Below, piece after piece: positions 6,873 through 63,539 of a DNA stretch of 64,000 nt; within the stretch, counting starts at the first letter, position 1, and each line of letters opens with the position of its first letter. This DNA is from Chloroflexota bacterium. Lineage in GTDB: Bacteria > Chloroflexota > Dormibacteria > Dormibacterales > Dormibacteraceae. The notes under the pieces are model-generated. The model searched no databases. It was given only the letters and a program-made list of their open reading frames with translations, and was not told where the DNA came from. The DNA lies in assembly GCA_005889135.1 (NCBI GenBank), contig VBEK01000138.1:1-64000 (forward strand), written 5' to 3'. The position numbers and the translations under genes were made by a program.

Positions 6873-6930
6873 GATAGTCCGGACTAACCGGCCCTTCGGG
6901 GCGCGCCCAACGGCGATAGTCCGGACTATC
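6873..6930 (+). repeat. 42-bp palindromic array A (two units, CCGG variant)
   Basis: Two near-palindromic 16-mers, at 6873-6888 and 6915-6930, start exactly 42 bases apart. They read GATAGTCCGGACTAAC and GATAGTCCGGACTATC. Compared with the other four arrays, the two central bases are exchanged symmetrically (CCGG in place of CGCG), so the palindrome is kept. The second unit ends in ACTATC and is a perfect 16-base palindrome, as in the last units of array B and (with one change) array C. The array lies just upstream of pdxS. Confidence 0.85.
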
Positions 6931-6965
6931 CGCTCGGCCGACCCGCCCTGGGTCCGAGTAGCTCC

Positions 6966-7039
6966 CTACACGCAGGTTTTTGCGCACAACGCGCCCATCC
7001 AGGGCGGTATATACACGCCCTTTGCGCAAAAAGCGTGTA
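6966..7039. repeat. Large imperfect inverted repeat (stem about 17 bp)
   Basis: TACACGC (6967-6973) pairs with GCGTGTA (7033-7039), and TTTTTGCGCA (6977-6986) pairs with TGCGCAAAAA (7023-7032). A three-base bulge lies on one side, and inner GGGCG/CGCCC pairs can fold as well. It begins about 12 bases after the stop of the DUF6982-like gene on the minus strand, so it may end that transcript. There is no following T-run as in a classical intrinsic terminator, and a remnant of a small mobile repeat is possible too. Confidence 0.5.
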
Positions 7040-7050
7040 AGGGCGGCGGG

Positions 7051-7608
7051 TTAGAGCCTTTCCAGGACCAGCGTCCGCTTCGAGGCGTACTCCGTGTCGG
7101 ACAGGAGCCCGTCGCGGTGCAACCGCGTGAGCATGTCCATCTCCTCGAGCACGTCGAGCAGCGGCGCCATCGTCCGGCGCGCGAGGTACGCATCCGATGC
7201 GGTGCCGGCCTCCTCGCCGCGCGCGTCGAACTCGCGCACGAAGAAGAGCGCTTTGACCGCTGAGAACGGAATCCCCAGCTTGCGGATCGGGCTGTCGCTG
7301 TGCTCGGCGTGGAGGTGCAAGACCACGCCGTAGCGATGCCTTTCCAGTGTGCCGTCGAGGTGGCCGCGAAGGACTTCGCCGTCGAGGAAGCGGATCGCGA
7401 CCTTACGCGTGGGCGTGTCGGCGAGCTCCTTGTCGCGCTGGAGCTCGACCCATTTGACAGCCGTGAGCGGGATCCAGGCGGTCTCGTTGTTCTCGAGGCC
7501 CCCTGCGTCGTCGACCTCGACAAGGAAGTCGGGCTCGTCGAAATCGAGGTCGCGGGCGGTGCCCTCGACCGTCTCGTCGTCGAAAAAGCGCACGACTATC
7601 CTGGCCAT
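7051..7608 (-). CDS. DUF6982-like protein with SHOCT-like C-terminus
   Basis: 185 residues, not recognised as an enzyme. Two related beta-rich segments (VRFFDDETVEGTARDL near 6-21 and IRFLDGEVLRGHLDG near 72-86) look like an internal duplication of the DUF6982 type, seen in PilZ-like regulators. The last ~35 residues (LLDVLEEMDMLTRLHRDGLL onward) resemble a SHOCT oligomerisation helix pair. It follows the ECF sigma factor by 15 bases and is probably cotranscribed. Function unknown. Confidence 0.65.
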   Translation of the reverse strand: MARIVVRFFDDETVEGTARDLDFDEPDFLVEVDDAGGLENNETAWIPLTAVKWVELQRDKELADTPTRKVAIRFLDGEVLRGHLDGTLERHRYGVVLHLHAEHSDSPIRKLGIPFSAVKALFFVREFDARGEEAGTASDAYLARRTMAPLLDVLEEMDMLTRLHRDGLLSDTEYASKRTLVLERL

Positions 7609-7623
7609 TTCATACCTACTCTA

Positions 7624-8412
7624 CTAACCCGCATCGTGCTTCACTCCTGCGCTGGTCTTTAGCCTCCTGCGCCCGATCTTGCGCGTGCACTTGGCGCACG
7701 TGGCGATGTGGTCCCGAACGGCCTCGGCCTGCGGCCGGCGCAGCTTCCCGGCGAGGTAAGGCGCGAGCAGCGGCAGCGCCTCCTCGTGGCTCAGTTGCCC
7801 CTCGCGCTGCGACGCGAGGTACTCCTCCTTGAATCGCAGTCGCGCACGGTAGAGGAGCGTCTCGACGGCGCTCTCCGACATCTTCAAGGTGCGCGCGATC
7901 TGGCGGTAGCTCATGTCCTGGAGCTCACGCAAGGTCAGCACCAGCCGGTACTTCTCGGGCAGGCGCTGCGCCACGATCCAGACCTGACGTCGCGTCTCGT
8001 TGGACTCCTGCACGAGCACCGGGTCGAACCCCTTCGACGTTGAAGGCAGGTTCGCCATGAGCTCGTCGTCCTCCTCCTCGGTCGTGCCGTCGGCGCGGAG
8101 GTCGCGCTGGCGGCGGCGAAGCTCGTCGAAGCACAGGTTGCGCGCCACGGTGTGCACCCAGCCGCCGAAGTTGAACGATTCGTCGACCTTGTCCATCATC
8201 CGCAGCGCCTTCATGAAGGTCTCCTGGGCGATGTCCTCGGCCAGCAAGGCGTCGCCGAGCTTGCGCCGGACCAGGCGATAGATGGAAGCGACGTAGCGGC
8301 GATGGAGCTCTTCAAAGGCGTGGACGTCGCCATTGCGGTAGGCGCGAACGAGCTCGACGTCGGTCGGCTCGGCCTGGTCCCTGGCGGCCGGCTGGTCCTC
8401 TAGCTCGCCCAT
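7624..8412 (-). CDS. ECF-type RNA polymerase sigma factor with C-terminal zinc-finger-like tail
   Basis: 262 residues. Region 2 is clear (ELHRRYVASIYRLVRRKLG, then AEDIAQETFMKAL and NLCFDELRRRQ), as is region 4 (RLPEKYRLVLTLRELQ, MSYRQIARTL, SAVETLLYRAR). After region 4 comes an extra ~60 residues with ATCAKCTRKI, preceded by His, which resembles the zinc-binding anti-sigma fold (zf-HC2/ZAS) fused to its sigma factor. The ATG overlaps the end of the glycerate kinase gene by 13 bases. Target promoters unknown. Confidence 0.85.
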   Translation of the reverse strand: MGELEDQPAARDQAEPTDVELVRAYRNGDVHAFEELHRRYVASIYRLVRRKLGDALLAEDIAQETFMKALRMMDKVDESFNFGGWVHTVARNLCFDELRRRQRDLRADGTTEEEDDELMANLPSTSKGFDPVLVQESNETRRQVWIVAQRLPEKYRLVLTLRELQDMSYRQIARTLKMSESAVETLLYRARLRFKEEYLASQREGQLSHEEALPLLAPYLAGKLRRPQAEAVRDHIATCAKCTRKIGRRRLKTSAGVKHDAG

Positions 8413-9515
8413 GAATGCCTGCGGCAGGCTACTACGGTGGCCCGCGTCAGCATCCCTTCTGGGTCACTTAGGGCCTGCTGCAGCGTGATTCCTTCCTCCG
8501 TGAGCGCCACCACCGCGGAGACGCCCAGCTCGTTCAGCGCCTCCCAGCCGGCGCCCTTGCTGCCGGCCAGCAGCAGGACCGGTATGCCTGCATTGCGCGC
8601 CCGCCGGGCCACCTCGCCCGGAGCCTTGCCAAAGGCGGTCTGCTCGTCCGCCTGCCCCTCGCCGGTGATGACCAGGCCCGCCCCCTGGAGCCTGGCGTCG
8701 AGGCCCGTGGCCTCGACGACGAGAGGGGCGCCCGGCTCGAGGGTGGCGTGGAGGAAGGCGACCAACCCGGCGCCGGTCCCGCCCGCGGCCCCCGCTCCGG
8801 GCAGGTCGTCGACCCCGACCACCTCGCCGAAGCGCTTCAGCGCGCGGTCCAGCTCCTCGACCATCGTGGGGTCGGCGCCCTTCTGCGGCCCGTACACGTG
8901 ACTGGCGCCGTTCGGCCCGGTCAGGGGGTTCGTGACGTCGCAGGCCACGCGCACCTTGACGACACGCCACCCCGGATCCAGCGCGGAGGTGTCGACCTGG
9001 GCGAGGTTGATGAGGGCCGCGCCACCGCGAGGCAGGTCACGGCCGCCGGCGTCGAGCAGCCGGCATCCGAGGGCCTGGGCCATCCCGGCGCCACCGTCGT
9101 TGGTCGCGGAGCCTCCGATGCCCGCGATGATCGTCGACACGCCGTCGCGTCGCGCCGCATCCAGCAGCTGCCCAAAGCCGTAGGTCGAGGTCTTGCGCGG
9201 GTCGCGCCGCTCCGGCGGGATGAGTGTGAGCCCGCTCGCCGCGGCCATCTCCACGACCGCCGTCCGTCCGGAATCGATCAATCCATAGCGCGCGTCGACG
9301 GGGTCACCGAGAGGACCTTCGGCCCGGACGTCGCGGTACTCGCCGCGTTTTGCCGAGACCAGCGCCTCAACGGTTCCGTCGCCACCATCGGCGACCGGGA
9401 CCTCGATGACGTCCGCGTCGGGGAACACCTCGCGCACGCCGCGCGCGATCGCGCGAGCAGCCTCTTCGGCCGTCATGGTGCCCTTGAACGCGTTCGGCGC
9501 GACGACAACTTTCAC
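8400..9515 (-). CDS. glxK: Glycerate kinase (GK1 family)
   Basis: Phosphorylates glycerate with ATP. Family signs are KVVVAPNAFKGTMTA at the N-terminus, PVADGGDGT, and the GIGGSATNDGGAGMAQALG motif, followed by the ITGEGQADEQT region. The GTG at 9515 starts exactly at the conserved N-terminus; an ATG at 9560 would add 15 unconserved residues. 371 residues, the usual length. The GTG lies inside a perfect 11-bp hairpin (9513-9538), so translation may be controlled. It overlaps the ECF sigma start. Confidence 0.9.
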   Translation of the reverse strand: MKVVVAPNAFKGTMTAEEAARAIARGVREVFPDADVIEVPVADGGDGTVEALVSAKRGEYRDVRAEGPLGDPVDARYGLIDSGRTAVVEMAAASGLTLIPPERRDPRKTSTYGFGQLLDAARRDGVSTIIAGIGGSATNDGGAGMAQALGCRLLDAGGRDLPRGGAALINLAQVDTSALDPGWRVVKVRVACDVTNPLTGPNGASHVYGPQKGADPTMVEELDRALKRFGEVVGVDDLPGAGAAGGTGAGLVAFLHATLEPGAPLVVEATGLDARLQGAGLVITGEGQADEQTAFGKAPGEVARRARNAGIPVLLLAGSKGAGWEALNELGVSAVVALTEEGITLQQALSDPEGMLTRATVVACRRHSWAS

Positions 9516-9538
9516 GGGGGAGGCAGGCCTCCCCCGTG
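9513..9538 (-). promoter_or_regulatory. Hairpin enclosing ribosome site and GTG start of glycerate kinase
   Basis: CACGGGGGAGG (9513-9523) and CCTCCCCCGTG (9528-9538) are a perfect 11-bp inverted repeat with a 4-base loop. Read on the minus strand, the 5' arm contains GGGGGAGG, a good ribosome-binding sequence, and the 3' arm ends in the GTG start codon. Both would be buried in the folded RNA. This is seen directly; a regulatory role is inferred. Confidence 0.5.
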
Positions 9539-9596
9539 GAGCCCCCTCCGTTGCACACATCGCCTGGATGCGTTTAGACAGATCACGCCTGGTGAC

Positions 9597-9615
9597 GGCC
9601 GGAGTGAATCCGGCC
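9597..9615 (-). terminator. Short hairpin after ilvE
   Basis: GGCCGGA (9597-9603) and TCCGGCC (9609-9615) form a perfect 7-bp stem with a 5-base loop, 17 bases after the ilvE stop. There is no T-run behind it, so it could be a weak or Rho-assisted end, or an RNA-stabilising hairpin. Confidence 0.35.
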
Positions 9616-9631
9616 TACAGCCCCACCTCGT

Positions 9632-10597
9632 CTAGTAAACGGGGATCGTCCAGTCCTTGTACTTCGGCAGCTCGCCGCGGACGGCGCCGAAGTAGATGTT
9701 CTGGAGCTCCTGCGTGAACTCCCCCACCTTGCCGTTGCCGACCGGCCTCCGGTCGACCTCGATGACCGGAGAGATCTGCGCGCCCGTGCCGCACAGAAGC
9801 AGCTCGTCGCACGTGTAGAGCTCGGTGCGGTCGATGCTCCGCTCCTGCACCTCGATGTTGAGCTCGTCGCCGATCACCTTCATCAGCAGCTGCCGGGTCA
9901 CGCCCTCGAGGATGTCGTCGGTCACCGGCGGGGTGACGAAGACGCCGTCCTTGAGCATGAAGACGTTCTCCGCCGAGCCTTCCGACACGTGGCCGTCGAT
10001 CGACATCACGATCGCCTCGTCGAAGCCGCCCTCCACGGCCTCCGATTTCGCGAGCGCCGCCTGCGCGTACGAGCCTGTGATCTTCGCCCGCGCCGGCAGC
10101 GCCTGGTCGGGGACACGCCGCCAGCTGCTCACCATGCAGCGGATGCCGGCCTCGACCTCCACGTACTTGCCGAACGGCACCGCGTAGATGAAGAAGTTGC
10201 GGTCGAGATTGTGGAGGCGGACGCCGATCTCCTCACTCGACGTGTAGAGCAGCGGCCGCACATAAACGTCGGATTTGAACTCGTTGCGGCGCAGCAGCTC
10301 GAGTGTGAAGTTGACGAGCTCCTCGGTCGAGTACGGCAGCTTCATGCGCATGACATTGGCCGAGCGGTGCATGCGGTCGTAGTGCGCCGCCGCCGCCAGG
10401 AGGTAGAGCTGACCCTTCTTCTGGTTCCAGTAGGCACGGATACCCTCGAAGACCGCCGTCCCGTAGTGCAGCGCGTGCGTCATCAGGCCGAGCTTCACAT
10501 CGTGATAGCGCGCGAAGTCGCCGTCGAAGAAGACCCACGTGTTGGGATGGACCGCCGGCTTCTTCGCCGCGGTCTTGGCTTTCGTATCCACACCCAT
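9632..10597 (-). CDS. ilvE: Branched-chain amino acid aminotransferase
   Basis: About 321 residues, PLP-dependent fold type IV (class IV aminotransferase). Last step of Leu/Ile/Val synthesis. Motifs include GLMTHALHYGTAVFEGIRAY, the KITGSYAQAALAK segment carrying the PLP lysine, EAIVMSIDGHVSEGSAENVF, and the C-terminal LLCGTGAQISPV. The ATG at 10597 is preferred; a TTG two codons upstream (10603) is possible. The extreme N-terminus is Lys/Ala-rich and not part of the fold. Confidence 0.93.
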   Translation of the reverse strand: MGVDTKAKTAAKKPAVHPNTWVFFDGDFARYHDVKLGLMTHALHYGTAVFEGIRAYWNQKKGQLYLLAAAAHYDRMHRSANVMRMKLPYSTEELVNFTLELLRRNEFKSDVYVRPLLYTSSEEIGVRLHNLDRNFFIYAVPFGKYVEVEAGIRCMVSSWRRVPDQALPARAKITGSYAQAALAKSEAVEGGFDEAIVMSIDGHVSEGSAENVFMLKDGVFVTPPVTDDILEGVTRQLLMKVIGDELNIEVQERSIDRTELYTCDELLLCGTGAQISPVIEVDRRPVGNGKVGEFTQELQNIYFGAVRGELPKYKDWTIPVY

Positions 10598-10660
10598 GCT
10601 CAAGTAAGTGTATTGCCCGGCGGGGTACTTACCTTTCCCGGGCGGTTACGATTTCCGAAC

Positions 10661-11035
10661 GTGAGCCTCTACGGCATCATCGCCGACCTGCGCCGCGAGC
10701 ACCCGACGACGGCTGCGACGCAGACGCTGGACCTGGTCGTTGCCGAGCTGGGCAAGACGCGCGACAACCTGAAGGAGGCCGTCGCCAACCTTGAGAGCAA
10801 GGCGCTGCCGTCGGGCGGCAAGCCCGTGGTCGACCAGCTCGTCCAGCGGGCGCGGACCGACGGCCTTTACGACGTCGACTACGGGCCCGACCCCTACGAC
10901 AAGCCGCCGCCGGAGCCTCTGGACGAAGGCACTGCCGGCATCGGCGCCCTGCTGGCCATCTCTTCGCTGGTGGGCGTGGCCCTCGCGGTCGTCGCGGTGA
11001 TCGTCGGGCTGAACGCGATCGCAAGCGGTGGCTGA
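10661..11035 (+). CDS. Small single-pass membrane protein, unknown
   Basis: 124 residues from a GTG start, not recognised. The N-terminal ~75 residues are predicted helical and charged (LRREHPTTAATQTLDLV, KTRDNLKEAVANLESKALP). A Pro/Asp-rich stretch (YGPDPYDKPPPEP) follows, and a single hydrophobic helix (GALLAISSLVGVALAVVAVI) sits near the C-terminus, suggesting a tail-anchored protein. It overlaps yajQ by 8 bases and is divergent from ilvE. Confidence 0.6.
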   Translation: MSLYGIIADLRREHPTTAATQTLDLVVAELGKTRDNLKEAVANLESKALPSGGKPVVDQLVQRARTDGLYDVDYGPDPYDKPPPEPLDEGTAGIGALLAISSLVGVALAVVAVIVGLNAIASGG

Positions 11036-11519
11036 GTTCTCGTTCGACGTCGTGTCCGAGTTCAACCCCGCCGAGCTGACCAACACCCTCGACCAGGCGC
11101 GCCGTGAGGTGGGCACCCGCTTCGACTTCAAGGACACCGCGACCAGCTACGAGCAGCGCGGCGACGTCATCGTCATCGAGTCATCGACCGAGGACCGGGC
11201 GCGGGCCGCGCTGCAGGTGCTGCGCGAGAAGGCCGCCCGGCGCCAGCTCTCGCCCAAGCTGTTCAAGGCCGGCGACCCGAAGACGGTGGGCAAGGGCCGC
11301 GGCCAGATCGAGGTCCAGCTGAACGCGGGCATCAACGACGACCTGGCGCGCGACCTCCGCAAGCGCATCCAGAACGTCTCCAGCAAGCTCCAGGTCCGCA
11401 TCCAGGGCGACCAGCTCCGGGTCGTGAGCAAGGACAAGGACACGCTCCAGCTGGTCATCAAGTCGCTTCGTGACGCCGAGGACATCCCGGTGCCGCTGCA
11501 GTTCACGAACTACCGCTAG
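11028..11519 (+). CDS. yajQ: YajQ family nucleotide-binding protein
   Basis: 163 residues, full length. Starts at GTG with AEFSFDVVSEFNPAEL, and carries the family pattern RFDFKDT and KLFKAGDPKTVGKGRGQ, ending in PVPLQFTNYR. YajQ proteins bind nucleotides (cyclic di-GMP in Xanthomonas) and have been linked to RNA binding; the role here is not known. It is 10 bases upstream of hisA. Confidence 0.92.
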   Translation: MAEFSFDVVSEFNPAELTNTLDQARREVGTRFDFKDTATSYEQRGDVIVIESSTEDRARAALQVLREKAARRQLSPKLFKAGDPKTVGKGRGQIEVQLNAGINDDLARDLRKRIQNVSSKLQVRIQGDQLRVVSKDKDTLQLVIKSLRDAEDIPVPLQFTNYR

Positions 11520-11529
11520 GCCGAGGGTC

Positions 11530-12234
11530 ATGGTCGTCATTCCAGCGATCGACATCCTCGGAGGGCGCTGCGTGCGCCTGACCCAGGGCAAGTACGAGCA
11601 GCCGACCGTCTATGCGGAGGATCCGGTGACGATGGCGCAGCGGTTCGCCGCCGCCGGCGCGCAGCTGATCCACGTCGTCGACCTCGACGCCGCGCGAGGT
11701 TCCGCCAGCAACCGGACGGTGATCGCACAGATGCTCGAGCAGTCGAAGGTCGAGATGCAAGTGGCTGGCGGCGTGCGCACCGAGGATGCGGTGAAAGCGC
11801 TGCTGGACAGCGGGGCTCACGCCGTGGTCATGGCGACTACCGCCGTGCGCGACCCGCACCTTTTCGAGCGCTGTGCGTTCGGGCATCCGGGCAAGGTGAT
11901 GGCTGCACTCGACGTCCGCGACAACAAGGCCGCCGTCGGCGGGTGGCTGGACACCGACCCCGTCGTGCTCAAGGCGCTTGTCGGACGCTGGGCCGACTTG
12001 CCGCTCGCGGGCGTCATCCTCACGTGCATCGACCGCGACGGCACGATGAGCGGCCCCGACCTGGACACCCTGGCAAAGGTGCGGAAGATGACCCGGCTGG
12101 AGCTGCAGTACTCGGGCGGCGTCTCCTCGCTTGACGACATCCGCCGGATCAACGCCACGGGCGCGCACGGCGTGATCCTCGGCAAAGCGCTCTACGAGGG
12201 GCGACTGAGGCTGGAGGAAGCGCTGGCCCTGTGA
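11530..12234 (+). CDS. hisA: ProFAR isomerase of histidine synthesis (HisA)
   Basis: 234 residues. Isomerises ProFAR to PRFAR, the fourth step of histidine synthesis, on a beta/alpha barrel. MVVIPAIDILGGRCVRLTQG contains the catalytic Asp; VAGGVRTEDAV, the TCIDRDGTMSGPD motif and SGGVSSLDDI complete the phosphate sites. The ATG at 11530 gives the conserved N-terminus. No other his gene is in the window. The stop overlaps the GTG of the next gene (GTGA). Confidence 0.93.
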   Translation: MVVIPAIDILGGRCVRLTQGKYEQPTVYAEDPVTMAQRFAAAGAQLIHVVDLDAARGSASNRTVIAQMLEQSKVEMQVAGGVRTEDAVKALLDSGAHAVVMATTAVRDPHLFERCAFGHPGKVMAALDVRDNKAAVGGWLDTDPVVLKALVGRWADLPLAGVILTCIDRDGTMSGPDLDTLAKVRKMTRLELQYSGGVSSLDDIRRINATGAHGVILGKALYEGRLRLEEALAL

Positions 12235-12623
12235 AAGCCGCCGCGATCGTCGCGGCCGCACTCGTGCTCCTCGCCTGCGGCGGGCGTGAGACCGCCGACG
12301 ACCAGGCCCTGCACAACGACATTCAGAACAGCTCGGACGGCGCCGAGGTGACGTTCGACGCGACTGTCATCACAGACCCGGTCGAGAGCGGCGGCCATGA
12401 GAGGTTCGAGGTGCGCACGACCACAGGTGAGCTGCTCGAGGTGGACCACAACACATCGCTTGCGCAAGCGGTGCCCGTGCACAAGGGCGACGCCGTGATC
12501 ATCCACGGGCGGCTGTTCATCGACCCGGGGCCGCGCTACGGCGTGCACTGCACACACGCGACGACTTCCACAGGCTGCCCTGACCCGGGATGGATCGAGT
12601 ACAACAGCAACTATTACGAATGA
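12231..12623 (+). CDS. DUF3465-like lipoprotein
   Basis: 130 residues from GTG. A short signal sequence ends in a lipobox (VLLACGG), so the mature protein should be lipid-anchored at Cys16. The rest resembles DUF3465, a small OB-like domain: RFEVRTTTGELLEVDHN, VPVHKGDAVIIHGRLFIDPG and CTHATTSTGCPDPGWIEYN. Function unknown. It is linked to hisA by GTGA and to the next microprotein by ATGA. Confidence 0.7.
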   Translation: MKAAAIVAAALVLLACGGRETADDQALHNDIQNSSDGAEVTFDATVITDPVESGGHERFEVRTTTGELLEVDHNTSLAQAVPVHKGDAVIIHGRLFIDPGPRYGVHCTHATTSTGCPDPGWIEYNSNYYE

Positions 12624-12763
12624 GCGGTCCATCGACGTTCCTTCGCAACCTCGTCGCCGGCAACCTGAGTCCGGCGGAGCGCATGCGCCGCGTGCTCACC
12701 AACCTGGGCCGCCGTACCGGCGGCAGTGGGTGCTGCGGTCACTACGGGGACCCCGGGTGTTGA
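12620..12763 (+). CDS. 47-residue Cys-rich microprotein (CCGxYGxPGC tail)
   Basis: Starts at an ATG that overlaps the preceding lipoprotein stop (ATGA) and ends in TGA at 12763. The N-terminal 30 residues are an amphipathic basic segment (NLSPAERMRRVLTNLGRR). The tail is GCCGHYGDPGC with three cysteines, a pattern that may bind metal or be redox active. I recall similar short tails in other high-GC bacteria but cannot name a family. The coupling and the clear motif argue that it is real. Array B begins about 60 bases downstream. Confidence 0.55.
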   Translation: MSGPSTFLRNLVAGNLSPAERMRRVLTNLGRRTGGSGCCGHYGDPGC

Positions 12764-12793
12764 ATGACGAAAGACGAGGCCCGTGCGGCCGGC

Positions 12794-13052
12794 CTGATCA
12801 AATGACGAAGGACAAGCAGACGGATAGTCGCGACTAACCCCGGTCTTGCGACACGAGGTTCGTGCATAGTCGCGACTAACGCGGGAGTTGGCGCACGAGG
12901 TACCCGGATAGTCGCGACTAACGCGGGTTTTGAAACACGAGGTGAACGGATACGCGCGACGAACTGCACTTTTGGAGCACGAGATGCGCGGATAGTCGCG
13001 ACTATCCGCGTCGAGAGACCACCGCACCCAGCCCGTTCTGATCAAATGACGA
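12794..13052 (+). repeat. 42-bp palindromic array B (five units) with flanking direct repeats
   Basis: Five units start at 12823, 12865, 12907, 12949 and 12991, each exactly 42 bases apart. Three read GATAGTCGCGACTAAC or differ only in the first base. The fourth is degenerate (GATACGCGCGACGAAC), and the last is the perfect palindrome GATAGTCGCGACTATC. The 26-base gaps also resemble one another (CGGG-TT-TG then CACGAGGT). A 15-base direct repeat, CTGATCAAATGACGA, flanks the array at 12794-12808 and 13038-13052; the right copy ends one base before the quinone reductase ATG. No other gene is seen between 12764 and 13053. Confidence 0.9.
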
Positions 13053-13053
13053 G

Positions 13054-14741: not shown

Positions 14742-14805
14742 GCTTTCGGTCCCCTCAGGTAAAGGCTTACAAATCCAGCCTCGCCCAAGCGTAACCTAGG
14801 GAAAA

Positions 14806-16098: not shown

Positions 16099-16126
16099 GG
16101 CCACGCCCCGATGATCGCACCGCGCC

Positions 16127-19435: not shown

Positions 19436-19467
19436 GGCTAGAGGATTGTGACTGCTGACCCGCCGAT

Positions 19468-20178: not shown

Positions 20179-20209
20179 CGGTGCCGCGATTGTGACGGTT
20201 ATCCGGGGA

Positions 20210-20896: not shown

Positions 20897-20931
20897 CGCT
20901 CAGGTATTTTCGTCGCTGGAGCACAACCCCG

Positions 20932-21030
20932 GATAGTCGCGACTAACCGCACTTCTTCTCGCGCAACACCCGCGATAGTCGCGACTAACCAGGATTTCGG
21001 GCGCGAGATGCATGGATCGTCGCGACTATC
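20932..21030 (+). repeat. 42-bp palindromic array C (three units)
   Basis: Units at 20932-20947 and 20974-20989 read GATAGTCGCGACTAAC and are 42 bases apart. A third at 21015-21030 (GATCGTCGCGACTATC) follows after 41 bases, with one base changed in the left arm and the symmetric ACTATC end. The spacing sequence again contains a GCGCGAGATGC-type stretch like array B. The array fills the gap between the end of pyrD and the start of the paired membrane-protein genes; nothing else is seen there. Confidence 0.88.
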
Positions 21031-21063
21031 CGGCAATGCCGGGGCCGCAATGCGCGCGCGGCG

Positions 21064-28700: not shown

Positions 28701-28707
28701 AAAAGAA

Positions 28708-47586: not shown

Positions 47587-47623
47587 GTCGGATGGGTCCC
47601 GCTCAGCACTGGGCGACGGTCGA

Positions 47624-50536: not shown

Positions 50537-50560
50537 GAGCGAACCACTCCCGGCTCGGAA

Positions 50561-56092: not shown

Positions 56093-56138
56093 CTTGGGTG
56101 GTCCGAGCTCACCGCGTCGGCCGGCATCTGAACCCCGG

Positions 56139-56280
56139 GATAGTCGCGACTAACGAGGGTTCTGGAGGCGCAACCACACGGATAGTCGCGACTAACGAGG
56201 GTTCTGGAGGCGCAACCACACGGATAGTCGCGACTAACCATGACGGTCGGCATCTGCAACCGCGGATGCGCCGGACTAAC
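56139..56280 (+). repeat. 42-bp palindromic array D (four units)
   Basis: Units at 56139, 56181, 56223 and 56265, each 42 bases on from the last. The first three read GATAGTCGCGACTAAC; the fourth is degenerate (GATGCGCCGGACTAAC). 56139-56180 and 56181-56222 are identical over all 42 bases, a recent exact duplication. A CGGCATCTG-AACC stretch flanks the array at both ends (from about 56121 and 56249). It lies between the purD start and the guaA stop; nothing else is seen there. Confidence 0.9.
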
Positions 56281-56292
56281 CGGAGTTATCGC

Positions 56293-57840
56293 CTACTCCC
56301 ACTCGATCGTGCCCGGGGGTTTCGACGTGATGTCGAACACCACCCGGTTGACGCCCTTCACCTCGTTGACGATCCGGTTGCTGATCCGCGCGAGCACCTC
56401 GTAGGGCACGCGCGCCCAGTCGGCGGTCATGGCGTCCTCGCTCGTCACCACTCGCACGGCGACCAGGTTCGCGTACGTCCGGTAGTCGCCCATCACGCCG
56501 ACCGTCTCCAGCGGGGTCAGGACCGCGAACGACTGCCACACCTGGCGGTACAGCCCGTTGCGCTTGATCTCGTCGACGACGACCCAGTCAGCGTTGCGAA
56601 GTATCTCCAGGCGCTCCGCGGTCACCTCGCCGAGGCAGCGAATCGACAGCCCCGGCCCGGGGAACGGCTGTCGGTACACCATCTCCTCGGGCATGCCGAG
56701 CTGCAGACCCACCGCTCGCACCTCGTCCTTGAAGAGATAGCGCAGCGGCTCGATGAGCTGGAACCGGAGCCCCGGCGGCAGACCGCCGACGTTGTGGTGG
56801 GTCTTGATCTTCGACGCCGTCGCCGCCACGTCGGGCGCGGTCGACTCGATCACGTCCGGATATAGGGTGCCCTGGGCGAGGAAGTCGATGCGACCGAGGC
56901 TCGCCGCCTCGGCCTCGAAGACGGAGATGAACTCGCGGCCGACGATGCGCCGCTTCTCCTCCGGGTCGAGGACGCCGCGCAGCGCAGCGAGGAACCGCTC
57001 GGTCGCGTCGACGTAGCGGATGTTCATGTCGAGGTTGCCGTGCATCACGTCGAGCACGCGCTCGGGCTCCTCCTTGCGCAGGAGCCCGTTGTTGACGAAG
57101 ACGCAGGTGAGCTGGTCGCCGAGCGCGCGATGGACGAGGGTCGCGGCCACGGCTGAGTCGACTCCCCCTGACAGCGCGCAGATCACCCGACCTGCCCCGA
57201 CCTGGGCGCGGATGCTCTCGGTCGCCTCGGCGATAAAGGAGCCCGCCGTCCACGACGGCGTGCAGTGGCAGACGCCGAACAGGAAGTTGCGCAGCACCTC
57301 GCGGCCGCTCGGCGTGTGCACGACCTCGGGATGGAACTGGATGCCGAAGATCCCCTTGCCGTCGGTGAAGGCCGCGTACGGCGAGTTGCCGCTGGTCGCC
57401 AGGAGCTGAAAGCCGGGCGGCATCTCGCTCACGTGGTCGCCGTGACTCATCCACACAGGCAGCTCGCCCTGCATGCCCCGAAAGAGACCGTTAGGCTCAC
57501 GCACCGAGAGGAGCGCCGGCCCGTACTCGCGGGCGCGGCCGGGGTCGACCTTGCCGCCGAGGTGGTGGGCGATGAGCTGCATGCCGTAGCAGATTCCGAG
57601 CACAGGGACGCCCGCTCGCAGCGCCGCCGGGTCCACCTGCGGGGCTCCGGCGTCGTAGACGCTCGCCGGCCCGCCGCTCAGGATCAGGCCGGCCGGGTGT
57701 CGCTTCTCCAGCTCCGGCCAGGGCGTCGAGCCGGGCACGAGCTCGCAGTAGACGTTGGCCTCGCGCACGCGTCGCGCGATCAGCTGGCTGAACTGCGAGC
57801 CGAAATCGAGGACGAGGATCGCCTGCTCGCGCGCGGTCAA
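56293..57840 (-). CDS. guaA: GMP synthase (glutamine-hydrolysing)
   Basis: 515 residues from TTG 57840. GATase domain: [20 protein letters not shown], nucleophile in [20 protein letters not shown]. The synthetase P-loop [15 protein letters not shown] is at about residue 220, and the dimer domain ends KPPGTIEWE. An alternative CTG at 57882 overlaps the guaB3 stop as CTGA and would add 14 residues, but the TTG already gives the normal N-terminal length. Confidence 0.94.
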
Positions 57841-57878
57841 CCGGGTTGGTGCTTCCCGCCGAGCTGCGGCGGTGCTGC

Positions 57879-58956
57879 TCAGGACTTGCCCATCCCTACG
57901 TGCTGGGCCTGCTGGAACACCTTGCCCTCGGAGACGATCGCGGGCGCGATCACCATCTCCACGTGCTGGAACTCGGCGATGTCCCTCGCCCCGCAAACGC
58001 CCAGCGCCGAGCGGAGCGCGCCGGCGAAGTTCTGCGACCCGTCGTCGACGCGGGCAGGCCCGAGCAGGATCTCGCGAAGCGTCGCCTTCGTGCCGACATG
58101 GATGCGGGTCCCGCGCGGCAGGTTCGGGTCTGGCGTCGCCATGCCCCAGTTGAAGCCCTTCGACGCCGACTCCTCGGCGCCGGCGAGCGGCGTCCCGATC
58201 ATGACCGCGTCGGCGCCGGCGGCAAATGCCTTGCACACGTCCGCGCCGATACGCATGCCGCCGTCGGTGATGACGGCCACCCGCATGCCGCCGCGGCGCA
58301 TGTGCTCGTCGCGGGCGGCCGCGACGTCCGCGGTCGCCGTCACCTGCGGCACGCCGACGCCCAGCACACCCCGCGTCGTGCACGCCGCGCCCGGACCGAC
58401 GCCGACCAGGATGCCGGCGATGCCGGTCTCCATCAGCTCCAGCGCCGTGTCGTACTGGACGCAGTTGCCGACCACGACGGGAATGTCGCACGCGCGCACG
58501 AGCTCGTCGAAGGCCAGCTGGTGGTATGATCGCCTTGATGCGCTCGGCGATGAGGTTCGGCTTGACGGGCTCGCGGTAAGCCTCTTTGAGGACGGCGTTC
58601 ACCGTCGCCTTGTCCGCCTCGGCGATCTTGCGGATCACGGGCGCCGAGTCCTCGTATCGAGTGTGCACGCCGTCGAGGTTCAGCACCGCGACGCCGCCCA
58701 GCCTTCCCATCGCGATGGCGAAGTCGACGTCGACGACGCCGTCCATCGCCGAGCCCCAGAACGGCAGGGGCAGCGAGAACCTCGCGCCCATGCTGAAGCC
58801 GATGTCCACCTCGTCAGGGTTGAGCGTCACGCCGCCAGGGACCAGGGCGACCTCGTCGAAGCCGTAGGCGCGGCGGGCCCGCCTTCCGATCCCTATCTCG
58901 AGGCCGTACTGCTCCCCGGAGATCTCTTCCCGGGTCTGCAGCCTGGTCTCTGTCAG
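57879..58956 (-). pseudogene. guaB3: IMP dehydrogenase-like protein GuaB3, internally broken
   Basis: The N-terminal part ([20 protein letters not shown], then [20 protein letters not shown]) runs in one frame to AERIKAI near 58530. The C-terminal part ([20 protein letters not shown], then [16 protein letters not shown] and [19 protein letters not shown]) is in another frame from about 58529. Besides the frame change, the barrel segment that should hold a VIQ-type strand (about 45 residues) is missing. Total 359 codons against a usual ~380-390 after allowing for an 18-codon N-terminal extension. Start taken as CTG 58956, 10 bases after GGAG. Assembly error or real loss are both possible. Confidence 0.7.
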
Positions 58957-58993
58957 GGTGTGTTTACTCCAATGAATGGGGCGGGTTCGGCGA

Positions 58994-58999
58994 ATTATA
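58994..58999 (-). promoter_or_regulatory. -10 element before guaB3
   Basis: Minus strand GCTATAATTCGCC carries a perfect TATAAT 38 bases before the proposed guaB3 CTG. It repeats the TATAATTCG context of the purB promoter at the same distance from the start codon. No clear -35 element is seen. Confidence 0.55.
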
Positions 59000-59022
59000 G
59001 CCGAGCCCTATCCTTTCCCTCG

Positions 59023-59445
59023 GTGTACCGCACCCTCGAGTACCTGCCCGGAATCTCGGACGAGGACGTGCGGCGACTTCGGACGGTGGGGATCCACCAT
59101 ACCAACCAACTGCTGCACCGCGCGTCGCTCGACATCGACCGCAAGCGCTTGGCGAAGAAGACCGGCATCACGCGGGAGCGTTTGCTCGAGTTCGTCCACC
59201 AGTGCACGCTGCTGGAGGTGTCGGGGATGGAGCGCTGGATTCCGCTGACGCGCCGGCTCGGCATCAGCTCCATGCCCGATCTGCGCGCCCAGGACGCGAA
59301 GGTTCTTCACGCGCGACTGCTCGAGGCGATCGGGCTCGCGGGCGCGCCAACCATCAGCGACGTCCAGTACTGGATCAGCCAGGCGACCGGCCTCGACATC
59401 GTCGAGCCGCCCGAGCCGGAGAAGGTACTCCCGGTCATCGACTGA
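59023..59445 (+). CDS. DUF4332-like helix-hairpin-helix protein
   Basis: 140 residues from GTG 59023; an ATG at 58972 is possible but would run through the guaB3 promoter. LEYLPGISDEDVRRLRTVGI at the start is a helix-hairpin-helix, and a second one follows (LTRRLGISSMPDLRAQ). The pattern fits DUF4332, a DNA-binding-type fold of unknown function. The C-terminal ~30 residues are acidic and Pro-rich. Confidence 0.6.
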   Translation: MYRTLEYLPGISDEDVRRLRTVGIHHTNQLLHRASLDIDRKRLAKKTGITRERLLEFVHQCTLLEVSGMERWIPLTRRLGISSMPDLRAQDAKVLHARLLEAIGLAGAPTISDVQYWISQATGLDIVEPPEPEKVLPVID

Positions 59446-59449
59446 GAAG

Positions 59450-59477
59450 AAGGGCGGGCGTCTGGCCGCCCGCCCTT
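59450..59477. terminator. Bidirectional intrinsic-type terminator
   Basis: AAGGGCGGGCG (59450-59460) and CGCCCGCCCTT (59467-59477) are a perfect 11-bp stem with a 6-base loop. It lies between the convergent DUF4332-like and ASP-box genes, 4 bases after one stop and 8 bases before the other. Only short T-runs follow. Confidence 0.75.
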
Positions 59478-59485
59478 GATTACGC

Positions 59486-61051
59486 CTAAGTGAAAGTCGC
59501 GCTGAAGACGTCTGTCGGATTCGTGTTGCTGGTTGCCGTTACGTTGCTGCTCGCCGGAGCGCACAGCGGATTGCTCGCCGGGTAAGGAGCGTCGCAGTTG
59601 GTCTTGACGAAGACCGCCATGAAGCCCGACCCGCTCGGCTGCAGGCCCTCGTAGTCGCCGAGGAAGAATCCGCGGGCGACCGGCGCGGTTCGCAGGTCGA
59701 ATGAGCCTGCGAGGTGCTGCTCGGCCCCCCACGACGCGCCTCCGTCGTTCGAGATCACGCCGAAGAAGTCCGTCGGCCAGTGGGCGGTGTCGCCCGGCGC
59801 CAGGTTGCGTGTGTCGTAGTAGGTAACCGCCACCTTGCCCCCGTTGACCGCGACGGTTGGCGTGAACGTCGGCAAGCCAGAGGCGAGCTTGTGCACAACT
59901 GAGGGCGTCGTCCACGTGGCGCCGCCATCGCTCGAGCTCGTGAGGAGGATCTCGTCATCCCACGCTCCGCTCGACTGCTTCAGCTGCTTCTGGAAATTCG
60001 TCGAGCTTTCGTAAACGACATACAGCTTGCCGTTGGAGGGGTCGATAGCGACCTCTTCGAGTCCATCGCCGACGCGGGCACGTTGACCGGTGTTCGGGTC
60101 GATCACGCCAAGGCTGTTGAAGGGCGCGATGACCTGCGGCTGTGTCCAGGTGTCGCCACCGTCGGTCGATTTGACGAATGCCAGCAGCGCGTTGCTGCGG
60201 GTGCCTCGGAACGGGGTGTTCGGCGACTCGATCAGATCGGTGAAGTCATAGAGGGTCCCGTTGCGCGGATCGACCACGATGATGTTGCCGATCGTCTGAT
60301 TCCGGTTCCCCGTGTCGATGATGACTTTGGCCTGGCTCCAGGTCTGCCCGCCGTCGGTCGTCTTGGAGAAATACGCCGGCCCGCTGTAAGCCTGTGCATG
60401 CGGGTTGTCGTCAGGGTTGTCGGTCGGCAGGATCAGCGTGTCCCAGACCGTATAGGCAAATCCCGCCTTCACCGGATCCGCGGTGGTGGCGTTCTTGTCA
60501 GTGCTCTGGTCGTTGGTGTCAAAGAACCCGCCGGGAATGCGCTGGATGTGGTCCCAGGTCATGCCTCCGTCCACGGAACGGGCGGCCACCACGGCATTGG
60601 CCCCGTTGGGCACCTGGATGTTGAAGGACAGCGCCGAGAAGTAGGCGGTGCCGTCGGGCCCAAACGACACCCATGGGTCAGAGGCCCTGAAGTAGCCGGC
60701 AAGCGACGGATCGACGGTACCGGGCCCGCAGGCATTCAAAGTGATGGTGGTAGAGGTCCAGCTGGCACCGCCGTTTGTCGAAAAGCCAACGCCGATCCCG
60801 TGCGCGCCGCCGTTCGACTTGCGGTCCTGGTGAAACACCGCGATCGCGCTGCTGCCGTGCACGGCCACCTGCGGTTCGACCTCCGCGTTGTTGAAAGTCC
60901 TTCCGGTCAACAGGTTGTCGCTGGCCGGAGGGCAAGCCGCCTGATAGGCCGTCGTTGCAGGGATGGGCGTGATGGCGGCCACCGCGCTCGAGGATGTGAC
61001 CAACACCACTCCGCTCGCGAGCGCAGCGGCCCATAGAGTTTTCCTCAGCAA
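59486..61051 (-). CDS. Secreted ASP-box (BNR/sialidase-like) beta-propeller protein
   Basis: 521 residues from TTG 61051, with GGGGGAG upstream. Signal peptide TLWAAALASGVVLVTSSSAVA, then a propeller with six ASP boxes (S-x-D/N-G-G-x-S/T-W): STNGGASW, SVDGGMTW, TTDGGQTW, STDGGDTW, SSDGGATW, SNDGGASW. No sialidase Arg triad or FRIP motif was recognised, so it is probably not an active sialidase. No anchor at the C-terminus; exported or bound outside the cell. Function unknown. Confidence 0.75.
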   Translation of the reverse strand: MLRKTLWAAALASGVVLVTSSSAVAAITPIPATTAYQAACPPASDNLLTGRTFNNAEVEPQVAVHGSSAIAVFHQDRKSNGGAHGIGVGFSTNGGASWTSTTITLNACGPGTVDPSLAGYFRASDPWVSFGPDGTAYFSALSFNIQVPNGANAVVAARSVDGGMTWDHIQRIPGGFFDTNDQSTDKNATTADPVKAGFAYTVWDTLILPTDNPDDNPHAQAYSGPAYFSKTTDGGQTWSQAKVIIDTGNRNQTIGNIIVVDPRNGTLYDFTDLIESPNTPFRGTRSNALLAFVKSTDGGDTWTQPQVIAPFNSLGVIDPNTGQRARVGDGLEEVAIDPSNGKLYVVYESSTNFQKQLKQSSGAWDDEILLTSSSDGGATWTTPSVVHKLASGLPTFTPTVAVNGGKVAVTYYDTRNLAPGDTAHWPTDFFGVISNDGGASWGAEQHLAGSFDLRTAPVARGFFLGDYEGLQPSGSGFMAVFVKTNCDAPYPASNPLCAPASSNVTATSNTNPTDVFSATFT

Positions 61052-61114
61052 TTCATCTCCCCCCTTTGTGCGCTCCCCGCGCACAACACGCCCCACCGAG
61101 ATCTTCAGATGACC

Positions 61115-61246
61115 TTAATCCCAGCCCATGCGGTGGCGCAACCAGGCCGCTGCCAGCCCTCCGCACCTGGAGCGCTCATCGAGCGCCCACAGGCGCTGCA
61201 GCGCGATCGCCGCCAGCGCCTGTCCGTCGGCCCTAGAGGAAGACAC
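61115..61246 (-). CDS. Possible 43-residue amphipathic microprotein
   Basis: GTG 61246 lies 14 bases inside the end of the acyltransferase gene, in another frame, and the ORF ends in TAA. The product has an orderly helix pattern: ADGQALAAIALQRLWALDE, then GGLAAAWLRHRMGWD with three Trp. That is more regular than the usual shadow frames here. No family recognised. The rest of 61052-61114 is the leader of the ASP-box gene. Confidence 0.35.
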   Translation of the reverse strand: MSSSRADGQALAAIALQRLWALDERSRCGGLAAAWLRHRMGWD

Positions 61247-62264
61247 CCCTTCGCAGCTTCAGGTTGTGGTAGATCCCGCGCTGGATCGTGTCCCTGACCT
61301 CGTCGGCGAGCGCCATCACCAGGTGCTGGTCCTCCGCCGCGTGGACGGGCAGCTCGCGCACGTCGACCGGCGGGTGGAACTGGATGCGCCACTTGCTCGG
61401 CAGAGGGATCATGCCCAACGGCCCGAGCCACGGCCAGAACGGCGTCACCGGAAAGTAGGGCAGGCCGAAGAGCTTGGCGACCGGGCCCAGGTCGCCGAGC
61501 ATGGGATAGATCTCCTCCGATCCGACCACCGAGACGGGGATGATCGGCGCCTGCGCCCGGATGGCGGTGGCGACGAATCCGCCCCGGCCGAAGCGGGTGA
61601 GCCGGTAGCGGTTCTTGAAGCTCTTGCCGGTGCCGCGCGTGCCCTCGGGGAAGACGAGCACGAGCTCGTCCCTGGCGAGGAGCCGCCGCGTGTCGTCGGG
61701 ATGGCCGACCGCCTGGCCCGTGCGACGCAGAAACCAGCTCATCACCGGCATGCCCATGAACTGGCTCGCGACTAGCGCCCGCACGTGGCGCGGATGGGGA
61801 TGCTCGGCGAAGACGGCCGTCTTGATCATGGTCCCGTCCCACGGCAGCACGCCGGCGTGGTTGGCCACGAGCAGCGCGCGCCCCGACGAGGGGACATGCT
61901 CCACGCCGGTCGTCTCCACCCGCCAGTAGTCGCGGTAGAGCACCTTGAAAGCGATGAGGAACGACTCCGTCCACTGCGGGTCGAAGCCGAAGTCGTCGAC
62001 CGCGTAGTGGGGGCCGCGCCGCGCCAGCTCACGCTGCTGATAGATGAACTGGACGACCTCCATGACCTTGCCGACGTCGATGACCTCGCGGCCTGTCAGC
62101 TCGCGCAGTCGCGTGGACAGCGCGCTGAGACCCTGCACCGCGTACATCGGCGCGTTGCGCCGCAGTCGCCGGATCGGCCTGGGCAGGCGGAGCCCCTGGC
62201 GGGGAGCGACGATCTCGGCCTTCTGGCTCTTGGTGCGTCTCTCGCGCGCGGTCGTCTCGATCAA
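61233..62264 (-). CDS. Lysophospholipid/1-acylglycerol-3-phosphate acyltransferase-like protein
   Basis: 343 residues from TTG 62264, which overlaps the stop of the epimerase gene (TTGA). PlsC-type: NHAGVLPWD near 138 is the HX4D catalytic box, VFPEGTRGTGKS near 210 the glycerol-phosphate motif, and APIIPVSVVG follows. An N-terminal helical extension of ~90 residues is typical of the longer hemolysin/DUF-type acyltransferases. Coupling with the NAD-dependent epimerase suggests a shared role in lipid or envelope synthesis. Confidence 0.82.
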   Translation of the reverse strand: MIETTARERRTKSQKAEIVAPRQGLRLPRPIRRLRRNAPMYAVQGLSALSTRLRELTGREVIDVGKVMEVVQFIYQQRELARRGPHYAVDDFGFDPQWTESFLIAFKVLYRDYWRVETTGVEHVPSSGRALLVANHAGVLPWDGTMIKTAVFAEHPHPRHVRALVASQFMGMPVMSWFLRRTGQAVGHPDDTRRLLARDELVLVFPEGTRGTGKSFKNRYRLTRFGRGGFVATAIRAQAPIIPVSVVGSEEIYPMLGDLGPVAKLFGLPYFPVTPFWPWLGPLGMIPLPSKWRIQFHPPVDVRELPVHAAEDQHLVMALADEVRDTIQRGIYHNLKLRRGVFL

Positions 62265-63301
62265 TTGCTCAACCTCAGGGCGCGGCGGCGGCGCTGCTGC
62301 AGGTAGACCTGGAGCTCGTACTCCTGCCGCGGCGAAGGCGCCTCTATGAGCTCGACGTTCTTGCCGGCCGCCAGCGCGTCCATGGCCTGGCGCGAGCTGT
62401 AGGCGGGCTTCCACTCGAACTCCGCCGCGAGCCGCGCGCAGTCCATGACCGAGCCGAAGGCGAGCATGTCGGCGAGGTAGGCGGGCAGCTCGATCCGCGC
62501 CAGCGCCCTCAGCCCGAGCCGGGAGAGCCAGCGTCCGAAGGGCGGGAGGACCGGCGTCGACCGGCCGCCCATGATGTCGATCGCCTGGCTCAGCAGCACG
62601 ACCCCATCGCCGGCCACGTTGAACGCGCCCTGGTGGTCGTCGACCACCGCCCGCACGATCGCCTCGGCTGCGTCGTCCTCGTGGAGGAGCTGAAGCCGGG
62701 GGTCGAAGCCGGCGAACACCGGCACGATCGGCAGCGAGAGGTAGCGCGCCAGCGAGGTGTCCTCGCTGACACGAAACCCAAGGCGCAGCACCGTGACGCC
62801 GCAAGCGTCGGTGCGCAGCGAGAACTCGCTCACGAGCTGCTCCATCTCGAGGAGGTCGCGCGTGATGCCCGACGCGGGCCGGTCCCAGTTGACCATCTCT
62901 TCGGTGAAGAAGGACGGGTCGTGAGCTCCGGCGCCGTAGATCGCCTGGCTGGACTTCACGACCAGGCGGCGCACCGGGCTCGCCGGCCCTGAGCACCCGA
63001 CGAGCACGTTCATGGTCCCGATGACGTCGGTCTCGTGGATCGAGCGCTCGTCGTGCGGCGAGTCGACCATGACCGCGAGGTGGACGACGGTGTCGATGCG
63101 CAGCTGGCGGACGAGCTTGCCGATCACGGAGAGGCGCGTGTCGGCGTGCACGAAGTCCATCTCTTCGAGCGCGCTCACGGGGTCGGCGACGTCGCAGCCG
63201 AAGAGCTGAGGCACCTGCGGCGCGAGCCGGCGCGCGACCTCGGCGCCGAGCGGGTTGGAGACGCCGGTGATGAGGACGCGACGAGGTCTGTGGGGGGTCA
63301 T
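62261..63301 (-). CDS. NAD-dependent epimerase/dehydratase (extended SDR)
   Basis: 346 residues from ATG 63301 with GGGGGAG just upstream (a TTG four codons earlier is possible). Rossmann start RVLITGVSNPLGAEVARRLA, VVHLAVMVD near 75. The catalytic Tyr is unclear: the usual YxxxK is replaced by SSQAIYGAGAHD and a later segment, so activity on sugar is uncertain. Often found beside PlsC-type acyltransferases. Array E lies upstream. Confidence 0.78.
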   Translation of the reverse strand: MTPHRPRRVLITGVSNPLGAEVARRLAPQVPQLFGCDVADPVSALEEMDFVHADTRLSVIGKLVRQLRIDTVVHLAVMVDSPHDERSIHETDVIGTMNVLVGCSGPASPVRRLVVKSSQAIYGAGAHDPSFFTEEMVNWDRPASGITRDLLEMEQLVSEFSLRTDACGVTVLRLGFRVSEDTSLARYLSLPIVPVFAGFDPRLQLLHEDDAAEAIVRAVVDDHQGAFNVAGDGVVLLSQAIDIMGGRSTPVLPPFGRWLSRLGLRALARIELPAYLADMLAFGSVMDCARLAAEFEWKPAYSSRQAMDALAAGKNVELIEAPSPRQEYELQVYLQQRRRRALRLSN

Positions 63302-63348
63302 GGTCTCCCCCAATCTAAATGAGTCGAGCCTGTAGCCCGGATTTACCC

Positions 63349-63539
63349 GATAGTGCGACTAACAACGGGTCCGAGTCTCCAACGCCTCGGGACCATCGAT
63401 AGTCGCGACTAACGAGGGTATTCGGCGTCGAAACCGCGCGATAGTCGCGACTAACGAGGGTATTGGCCGTCGATACCGCGCGATAGTCGCGACTAACGTG
63501 GGATCCGGGGCTCCAATACCTCGGATAGTCGCGACTAAC
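63349..63539 (+). repeat. 42-bp palindromic array E (five units)
   Basis: Units start at 63349, 63398, 63440, 63482 and 63524. The last four are GATAGTCGCGACTAAC, exactly 42 bases apart. The first lacks one base (GATAGTGCGACTAAC) and is 49 bases from the second. Gaps share GAGGGTATT-GGCGTCGA-ACCGCGC. The array lies between the epimerase start and the end of glutamate dehydrogenase; no gene was seen in 63302-63592. Confidence 0.9.

What the first reader, a model, noticed from the sequence alone, without database searches (positions are those of the whole stretch)
6873..63539. A family of five intergenic arrays built on GATAGTCGCGACTAAC at 42-bp steps
Arrays A-E (6873, 12823, 20932, 56139, 63349) together hold 19 units. 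Nearly all steps within an array are exactly 42 bases, with gaps of 26 bases that also share a consensus (CGGG-TT-GG-GCAC-A-). They sit only between genes, and five sets in 64 kb implies many per genome. 42 bp equals four turns of B-DNA, so dyad sites face one side of the helix. A palindrome without a loop is poor as an RNA hairpin but well suited to a dimeric DNA-binding protein. I infer binding arrays for a nucleoid, partition or silencing protein, or a new class of dispersed iteron-like repeat.
Basis: partly seen in the sequence, partly recalled or inferred. Interest (0 to 1): 0.8.

Follow-up and report, generated by a model that had tools for sequence, protein, structure and literature searches.

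The report
Palindrome satellites of a homing-like nuclease
The repeated palindromes in this soil Chloroflexota genome appear to be gene-less offshoots of an unrecognised kind of small mobile DNA element, whose full copies carry one gene for a DNA-binding, DNA-cutting protein between the same palindromes, and which also occurs in Actinomycetota.

Summary
In detail: five intergenic arrays of a 16-bp near-palindrome lie in the window at 42-bp steps. The genome holds 164 forward and 155 reverse copies (control 0). What the comparison shows is different. The arrays are ORF-less forms of a ~1.1-kb element: palindrome doublet, one ~300-aa ORF, inverted palindrome doublet. A full copy sits in this genome (contig C200) and in at least six sister species. 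The protein is an AbiEi-type DNA-binding module joined to a DUF559 nuclease domain that resembles homing endonuclease I-Bth0305I.

ORFs flanked by this palindrome form one clade (100/100). Those flanked by the CGCG-centred variant form a subclade. Other AbiEi-DUF559 ORFs carry unrelated palindromes, again at exactly 42 bp, so the protein probably sets the spacing. A second palindrome family is dispersed as 42-bp pairs too. In Actinomycetota, 8 of 9 such genes examined score above all 50 control genes for terminal inverted repeats, and two of their repeats are dispersed.

It works like REPIN-RAYT, but no Y1 transposase gene reaches threshold in the 16 same-genus genomes searched. Shown: linkage, co-phylogeny, presence/absence, geometry. 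Inferred: that the nuclease binds and spreads the repeats.

The parts
6873..6930 (+). Array A: ORF-less doublet, two palindromes at 42 bp, CCGG centre (the form usual in sister species); between a PdxS gene and a DUF6982 gene
6978..7035 (.). Degenerate doublet of another palindrome family (TTTGCGCAAA), TTGCGC at 6980 and 7022, 42 bp apart, beside array A
   Evidence: same family in other intergenic doublets and upstream of AbiEi-DUF559 ORFs L320/L327
12823..13006 (+). Array B: five units at 42-bp steps (fourth degenerate), last unit the exact palindrome; flanked by a 15-bp direct repeat CTGATCAAATGACGA
   Evidence: absent from the orthologous junction of G003
20932..21030 (+). Array C: three units (42, 41); part of a ~163-bp insertion between two genes that abut in most relatives
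56139..56280 (+). Array D: three exact units plus a degenerate fourth at 56265; first two 42-bp units identical; between PurD and GuaA genes
   Evidence: sister species G008 has a CCGG doublet at this junction
63349..63539 (+). Array E: one unit with a 1-bp deletion, then four exact units at 42-bp steps; between an epimerase and a glutamate dehydrogenase gene
   Evidence: absent from orthologous junctions of G005 and G008

Best explanation
The arrays are non-autonomous, ORF-less copies of the ends of a small mobile element. The full element is about 1.1 kb: a doublet of palindromes at 42 bp, a CTTAACAG-type motif, one ORF of about 300 aa, and an inverted doublet at the other end. The ORF encodes an AbiEi-type DNA-binding module (N-terminal) joined to a DUF559/EDxHD-type PD-(D/E)XK nuclease (C-terminal). 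Proposed mechanism: the protein binds two palindromes four helical turns apart on the duplex, as AbiEi antitoxins bind paired inverted repeats, and cleaves at or near them. Repair of the break copies the element, or only its end, into other sites, including sites that already hold an older copy. Tandem 42-bp gains make arrays. Insertions survive mainly just behind stop codons. Shown: anatomy of full copies, presence and absence between species, co-phylogeny of protein and palindrome, shared 42-bp geometry, conserved active-site residues, fold. Inferred: binding, cleavage, and break-repair copying.
For: Full copies with the ORF between inverted doublets in G000:C200, G009, G006, G005, G011, G016 and G010. 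ORF identity: DUF559, AbiEi models down to E 1e-15. Fold (pLDDT 85.7): AbiEi 6y8q E 2.3e-5, Rv2827c 1zel, homing endonuclease I-Bth0305I 3r3p TM 0.78 and DUF559 3hrl TM 0.79 over the target. Catalytic-type residues S202, E205, D238, E249, D251 conserved in 49-50 of 50 proteins. TAGTC-flanked ORFs are one clade, 100/100; CGCG-centred ones a subclade, 100/97. Upstream repeats at lag 42 in 7/7 TAGTC ORFs and in 39 other ORFs with other palindromes (z 8.6 against other lags; control genes 1.7). Second family CGCGASYGCCGGCRSTCGCG dispersed, 16/16 close pairs at 42 bp, full copy in G011:C17. Insertions absent from relatives: array C, in-frame array in a glutamate-synthase-like gene. Junction re-use: 20 of 21 sister-species doublets that map to this genome fall on a junction with an array, with spacers no more alike than random and orientation often flipped. 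Actinomycetota: TIR score 14.5-47.5 in 8 of 9 genes, control maximum 13 in 50 genes; two of their repeats dispersed.
Against: No target-site duplication as a rule: only array B stands out. G008 (95% complete) has 64 CCGG cores but none of its AbiEi-DUF559 ORFs examined is TAGTC-flanked, and several other doublet-bearing genomes likewise, so copies persist without the gene. One junction keeps orthologous doublets in three species (G007, G008, G016), so loss is slow. One of nine actinomycete genes (L364) shows no TIR above its shuffles, and L367, whose ends I estimated because the record is unannotated, is only marginally above. Actinomycete repeats are long hairpins and were not shown to share the 42-bp step. 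No binding, cleavage or movement has been measured.
Confidence: 0.72

Rival explanations
1. The AbiEi-DUF559 protein is a regulator or defence factor, and the dispersed arrays are its working binding sites, kept for gene regulation or chromosome organisation. Spread of the sites is incidental.
For: AbiEi antitoxins bind paired inverted repeats in their own promoter (PMC7319586); doublets lie directly upstream of the ORF as operators would; invariant cores beside divergent spacers in one orthologous trio.
Against: Doublets lie at both ends of the ORF as inverted repeats; solo copies lie at gene 3-prime ends, rarely in divergent (promoter) regions, 3 of 64; an in-frame copy inside a glutamate-synthase-like gene; patchy copy number, 0 to 158 pairs in one genus.
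Confidence: 0.14
2. The arrays are mainly bidirectional transcription terminators or mRNA 3-prime hairpins, repeatedly recruited behind stop codons.
For: 30 of 64 classifiable arrays lie between convergent genes against 103 of 782 junctions; the TAG in the palindrome is the stop codon of 12 genes; T-rich tract 7-10 bases outside each core on both strands; other species carry other hairpins at the same junction.
Against: Spacers and core flanks do not self-pair above shuffles, z -4.0 to +0.5; exact 42-bp step and linkage to a nuclease gene are unexplained.
Confidence: 0.09
3. REPIN/BIME elements moved by a RAYT (Y1) transposase.
For: Same habit: intergenic palindromic doublets, arrays, one cognate gene (PMC3116915).
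Against: No Y1_Tnp match at E 0.001 in the 16 same-genus genomes searched, with 5 of 14 control genomes positive; doublet spacers lack the compensatory changes described for REPINs.
Confidence: 0.02
4. High-affinity DNA gyrase or nucleoid-protein wrapping sites.
For: 10.5-bp A/T phasing over the unit; preference for convergent gene ends, where positive supercoils build up (inference from general knowledge).
Against: Phasing stops after one A/T tract outside the array; does not explain the cognate ORF or the palindrome-protein co-phylogeny.
Confidence: 0.03

Closest known systems
REPIN / RAYT (REP doublets with Y1 tyrosine transposase)
   Same: Dispersed intergenic palindromic doublets, arrays, a cognate nuclease gene flanked by the same repeat, co-diversification of gene and repeat
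   Different: No Y1 gene found; AbiEi-DUF559 protein instead; fixed 42-bp spacing; no compensatory pairing in spacers (single-strand hairpin not supported)
IS elements with MITE derivatives
   Same: One ORF between terminal inverted repeats, plus ORF-less copies
   Different: No known transposase; no consistent target-site duplication; ends are doublets of full palindromes
EDxHD / Vsr-like homing endonucleases (I-Bth0305I)
   Same: Predicted fold and PD-(D/E)XK-type residues of the nuclease domain
   Different: Not in an intron or intein; carries an AbiEi module; leaves dispersed palindromic satellites
AbiE type IV toxin-antitoxin antitoxin AbiEi / Rv2827c
   Same: Fold and sequence similarity of the N-terminal module; paired inverted repeats upstream of the gene
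   Different: No partner toxin gene seen at the full copies inspected; fused nuclease; repeats at both ends and dispersed
Rickettsia palindromic elements
   Same: A palindromic element inserted in frame in a coding gene
   Different: Tandem 42-bp structure and cognate ORF; mostly intergenic

Membership tests
REPIN/RAYT | Y1 (PF01797) RAYT gene in the genome | tested here: not met
   0 matches in 16 same-genus genomes
REPIN/RAYT | Doublet folds as a hairpin with compensatory changes | tested here: not met
REPIN/RAYT | Repeat flanks its cognate gene and co-diversifies with it | tested here: met
IS/MITE | ORF bounded by terminal inverted repeats, with ORF-less copies | tested here: met
IS/MITE | Target-site duplication | tested here: inconclusive
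   Mean 6.68 against 6.19 for mismatched flanks; only array B clear
IS/MITE | Known transposase family | tested here: not met
   Pfam and NCBIfam scans find no transposase, only DUF559, AbiEi-type and weak restriction-endonuclease matches
EDxHD homing endonuclease | Catalytic-domain fold and residues | tested here: met
EDxHD homing endonuclease | Cleavage of a specific long site and copying by repair | not testable with these tools
   needs biochemistry
AbiEi antitoxin | AbiEi two-domain fold | tested here: met
AbiEi antitoxin | Adjacent AbiEii/DUF1814 toxin gene | tested here: inconclusive
   At full copies in G000, G005, G006, G009 and G011 the neighbours read as host genes; no systematic DUF1814 search was run

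The most novel reading that the evidence does not exclude
A class of mobile element, present in Chloroflexota and Actinomycetota, that spreads by an AbiEi-guided homing-type nuclease. The nuclease cuts at palindrome doublets four helical turns apart, and break repair copies either the whole ~1.1-kb element or only its ends, creating families of palindromic satellites that replace one another at the same gene ends.
Probability: 0.55. Interest if true: 0.92.

Novelty: categorically new. Interest (0 to 1): 0.85.

Why it matters
Dispersed palindromic repeats are known from many bacterial genomes, and for most families outside REP-RAYT no mobilising enzyme is known. These data tie several unrelated repeat families in two phyla to one gene family, annotated until now as 'DUF559' or 'AbiEi-like', with a spacing rule (42 bp in the Chloroflexota class) that makes the link testable. 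If right, a common orphan gene family is the engine of a large hidden set of mobile elements.

Tried and rejected
RAYT/Y1 transposase: no match in the genus genomes searched. Rfam: no match in the window. RNA hairpins: symmetric consensus but no self-pairing above shuffles, below them in mid units. Simple vertical descent of arrays: rejected, spacers at shared junctions are no more alike than random, 0.52 against 0.50, except one true orthologous trio. Target-site duplication: no general signal. Recurrent gene families beside the arrays: window neighbours are ordinary metabolic genes. The 1.11 Mb sample mixes stretches chosen because they hold arrays with unchosen ones, so array density was judged only on the unchosen part, which here includes the window. 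Phage collection: no match to the ORF. Literature: no paper in the open library holds both AbiEi and DUF559, and the 14 with DUF559 do not appear, by title and abstract, to concern mobile repeats; subscription papers and preprints were not searched.
Full report
OBSERVATION. The five arrays exist as described. The unit is GATAGTC-NN-GACTAAC. The last unit of an array is often the exact palindrome GATAGTC-NN-GACTATC, so arrays read P1-P1-...-P2. In the whole genome (2.95 Mb, 221 contigs, 94.7% complete; the window is the first 64 kb of contig C175) there are 164 forward and 155 reverse copies with up to one mismatch, and none of the control pattern. In 1.11 Mb of stretches I found 70 arrays of 1 to 7 units, with steps 42 (147), 43 (8), 41 (3) and one double step.

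HOST. Named relatives that carry the same doublet are soil Chloroflexi MAGs. The repeat is confined to one genus: 14 of 17 genomes of the genus, none of 93 other genomes of the class. In sister species the core is usually TAGTCCGGACTA, as single doublets; in this genome it is TAGTCGCGACTA, tandemly expanded (158 close pairs against 0 to 19).

GENE CONTEXT. With a codon-usage gene caller, arrays lie between convergent genes in 30 of 64 cases (background 103 of 782 junctions), in tandem junctions in 31 and in divergent ones in 3 (Fisher p 3e-12 for convergent). In 12 of 91 facing gene ends the TAG of the palindrome is the stop codon. One array lies in frame inside a 1,417-codon glutamate-synthase-like gene and is absent from two relatives.

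DNA, NOT RNA. Spacers have a symmetric consensus, ACCGGGnTTTTGG...CGAAAACCCCGGA, but individual spacers and core flanks do not self-pair more than shuffled partners; in mid units they pair less (z -4.0). A/T content along the unit is dominated by the 10.5-bp harmonic. The pattern fits recognition of duplex DNA by a symmetric protein.

INSERTION AND REPLACEMENT. Array C sits in a ~163-bp insertion at a start/stop junction that is nearly abutting in most of the 11 sister species compared. Yet 20 of 21 sister doublets whose flanks map into the sampled part of this genome fall on a junction that has an array here (two loci fetched because of one junction are left out). Chance at the rate of arrays per junction is 6e-24, or 3e-10 using the convergent rate. 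Nineteen of the mapped cases fall in stretches that I had chosen because they hold an array, but such a stretch also holds many other junctions; in unchosen stretches it is 3 of 4. At these shared junctions the spacers are no more alike than between random loci (0.52 against 0.50), and array orientation is often flipped. So the same sites are re-used by different copies. One trio (G007, G008, G016) is plainly orthologous.

THE FULL ELEMENT. Doublets about 1.0-1.07 kb apart flank one ORF of about 300 codons in G000:C200 (L170:5503-6649), G009, G006, G005 and G011, and in G016 and G010. In several copies the inner cores are mirror variants (TCGTCCGGACTA / TAGTCCGGACGA), making the doublets terminal inverted repeats; in three the ORF's stop codon is the first TAG of the right-hand core. 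At two junctions some species have the full element and others only a doublet or array.

THE PROTEIN. Pfam gives DUF559 at the C-terminus; PADLOC AbiEi models match the N-terminal two thirds (E down to 1e-15). AlphaFold2 gives mean pLDDT 85.7. Foldseek finds AbiEi (6y8q, E 2.3e-5) and Rv2827c (1zel), then the catalytic domain of homing endonuclease I-Bth0305I (3r3p, TM 0.78 over the target; E 0.04) and DUF559 protein 3hrl (TM 0.79; E 0.23). S202, E205, D238, E249 and D251 are kept in 49-50 of 50 proteins, including six from Actinomycetota.

PROTEIN TRACKS PALINDROME. TAGTC-flanked ORFs are a single clade (100/100). The two with the CGCG centre, from G000 and G009, are a subclade (100/97), matching the two genomes where the CGCG form is expanded.

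THE 42-BP RULE. Related ORFs occur in 42 of 110 genomes of the class, 1 to 16 matches each. Upstream of 39 such ORFs with other palindromes, direct repeats peak at lag 42 (z 8.6; control genes 1.7). Palindromes include CCCGCGAGTGCCGGCACTCGCGGG, CCGATTGGTACCAATCGG and CCCCATCCGCCGGCGGACGGGG. Five of these families show a second copy downstream well above shuffles. The family CGCGASYGCCGGCRSTCGCG is itself dispersed: 37, 29, 23 and 18 copies in G000, G006, G009 and G011, against 8-11 for the control pattern; in the part of the listing I read, all 16 close pairs are at exactly 42 bp. Across lags 30-55, non-TAGTC intergenic palindrome doublets in this genome occur almost only at 41-42. A degenerate one lies in the window beside array A (6980/7022). 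Four-turn spacing thus goes with the protein family, not with one sequence.

BEYOND THE PHYLUM. Nine AbiEi-DUF559 homologues in Tsukamurella, Arthrobacter and Nonomuraea records were examined. Eight have terminal inverted repeats scoring 14.5-47.5, against a maximum of 13 in 50 control genes. The weakest of these (Nonomuraea, 14.5, shuffle maximum 12) rests on ORF ends I estimated because the record is unannotated. Two of the repeats are found elsewhere in the same genomes, mostly where no gene is annotated or in an unannotated record (20 and 10 strand-wise places).

MECHANISM. AbiEi binds two 23-bp inverted repeats 3 bp apart, cooperatively, and bends DNA (PMC7319586). I infer that the fused protein binds the 42-bp doublet likewise, that its nuclease cuts there, and that repair copies the element or its end into other sites. 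This would account for re-use of sites, flipped orientation, species-wide change of the core, and tandem growth. None of these steps has been measured. AbiEi-only regulation would explain upstream doublets but not inverted doublets at both ends or dispersed copies behind stop codons.

KNOWN OR NEW. In habit this is closest to REPIN-RAYT (PMC3116915, PMC3733652), but the defining Y1 gene is not found and the REPIN hairpin covariation is absent. No paper in the open library holds both AbiEi and DUF559. Subscription literature and preprints could not be searched, so prior description is not excluded. I rate it categorically new because it fails a defining test of each known class considered, while saying plainly that the general habit (a cognate nuclease gene plus palindromic satellites) has a precedent in REPIN-RAYT.

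Noticed in passing
window 6978-7035: Degenerate doublet of a second palindrome family (TTTGCGCAAA), 42 bp step, next to array A.
   Followed up: partly
window 12780-13050: Array B is flanked by a 15-bp direct repeat CTGATCAAATGACGA; most other arrays show no such repeat.
   Followed up: partly
L147:6125-6224 (G000:C90): Array in frame inside a glutamate-synthase-like gene, adding DSRDY-type peptide repeats; G003 lacks it and G008 has a different palindromic insert at the same spot.
   Followed up: partly
L283 (G014), L275 (G012), L281 (G011): At the same convergent junction these species carry another tandem hairpin repeat, CTCCCCATTCATGGGGAG.
   Followed up: no
L220:14656-14739 (G005): Another AbiEi-DUF559 ORF ends in its own 42-bp tandem repeat, read as a 14-aa repeat in the protein tail.
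   Followed up: partly
L362 (Tsukamurella) and upstream of many Chloroflexota ORFs: A shared CTTAACAG-type motif: outer end of the Tsukamurella terminal repeat and just before the ORF in Chloroflexota elements.
   Followed up: no
G000 spacers, mid-unit core flanks: Spacers and mid-unit core flanks self-pair significantly less than shuffled partners (about 4 standard deviations), as if hairpins are avoided.
   Followed up: no
G008: 64 CCGG cores in a 95% complete genome in which no TAGTC-flanked nuclease ORF was seen among those examined.
   Followed up: no
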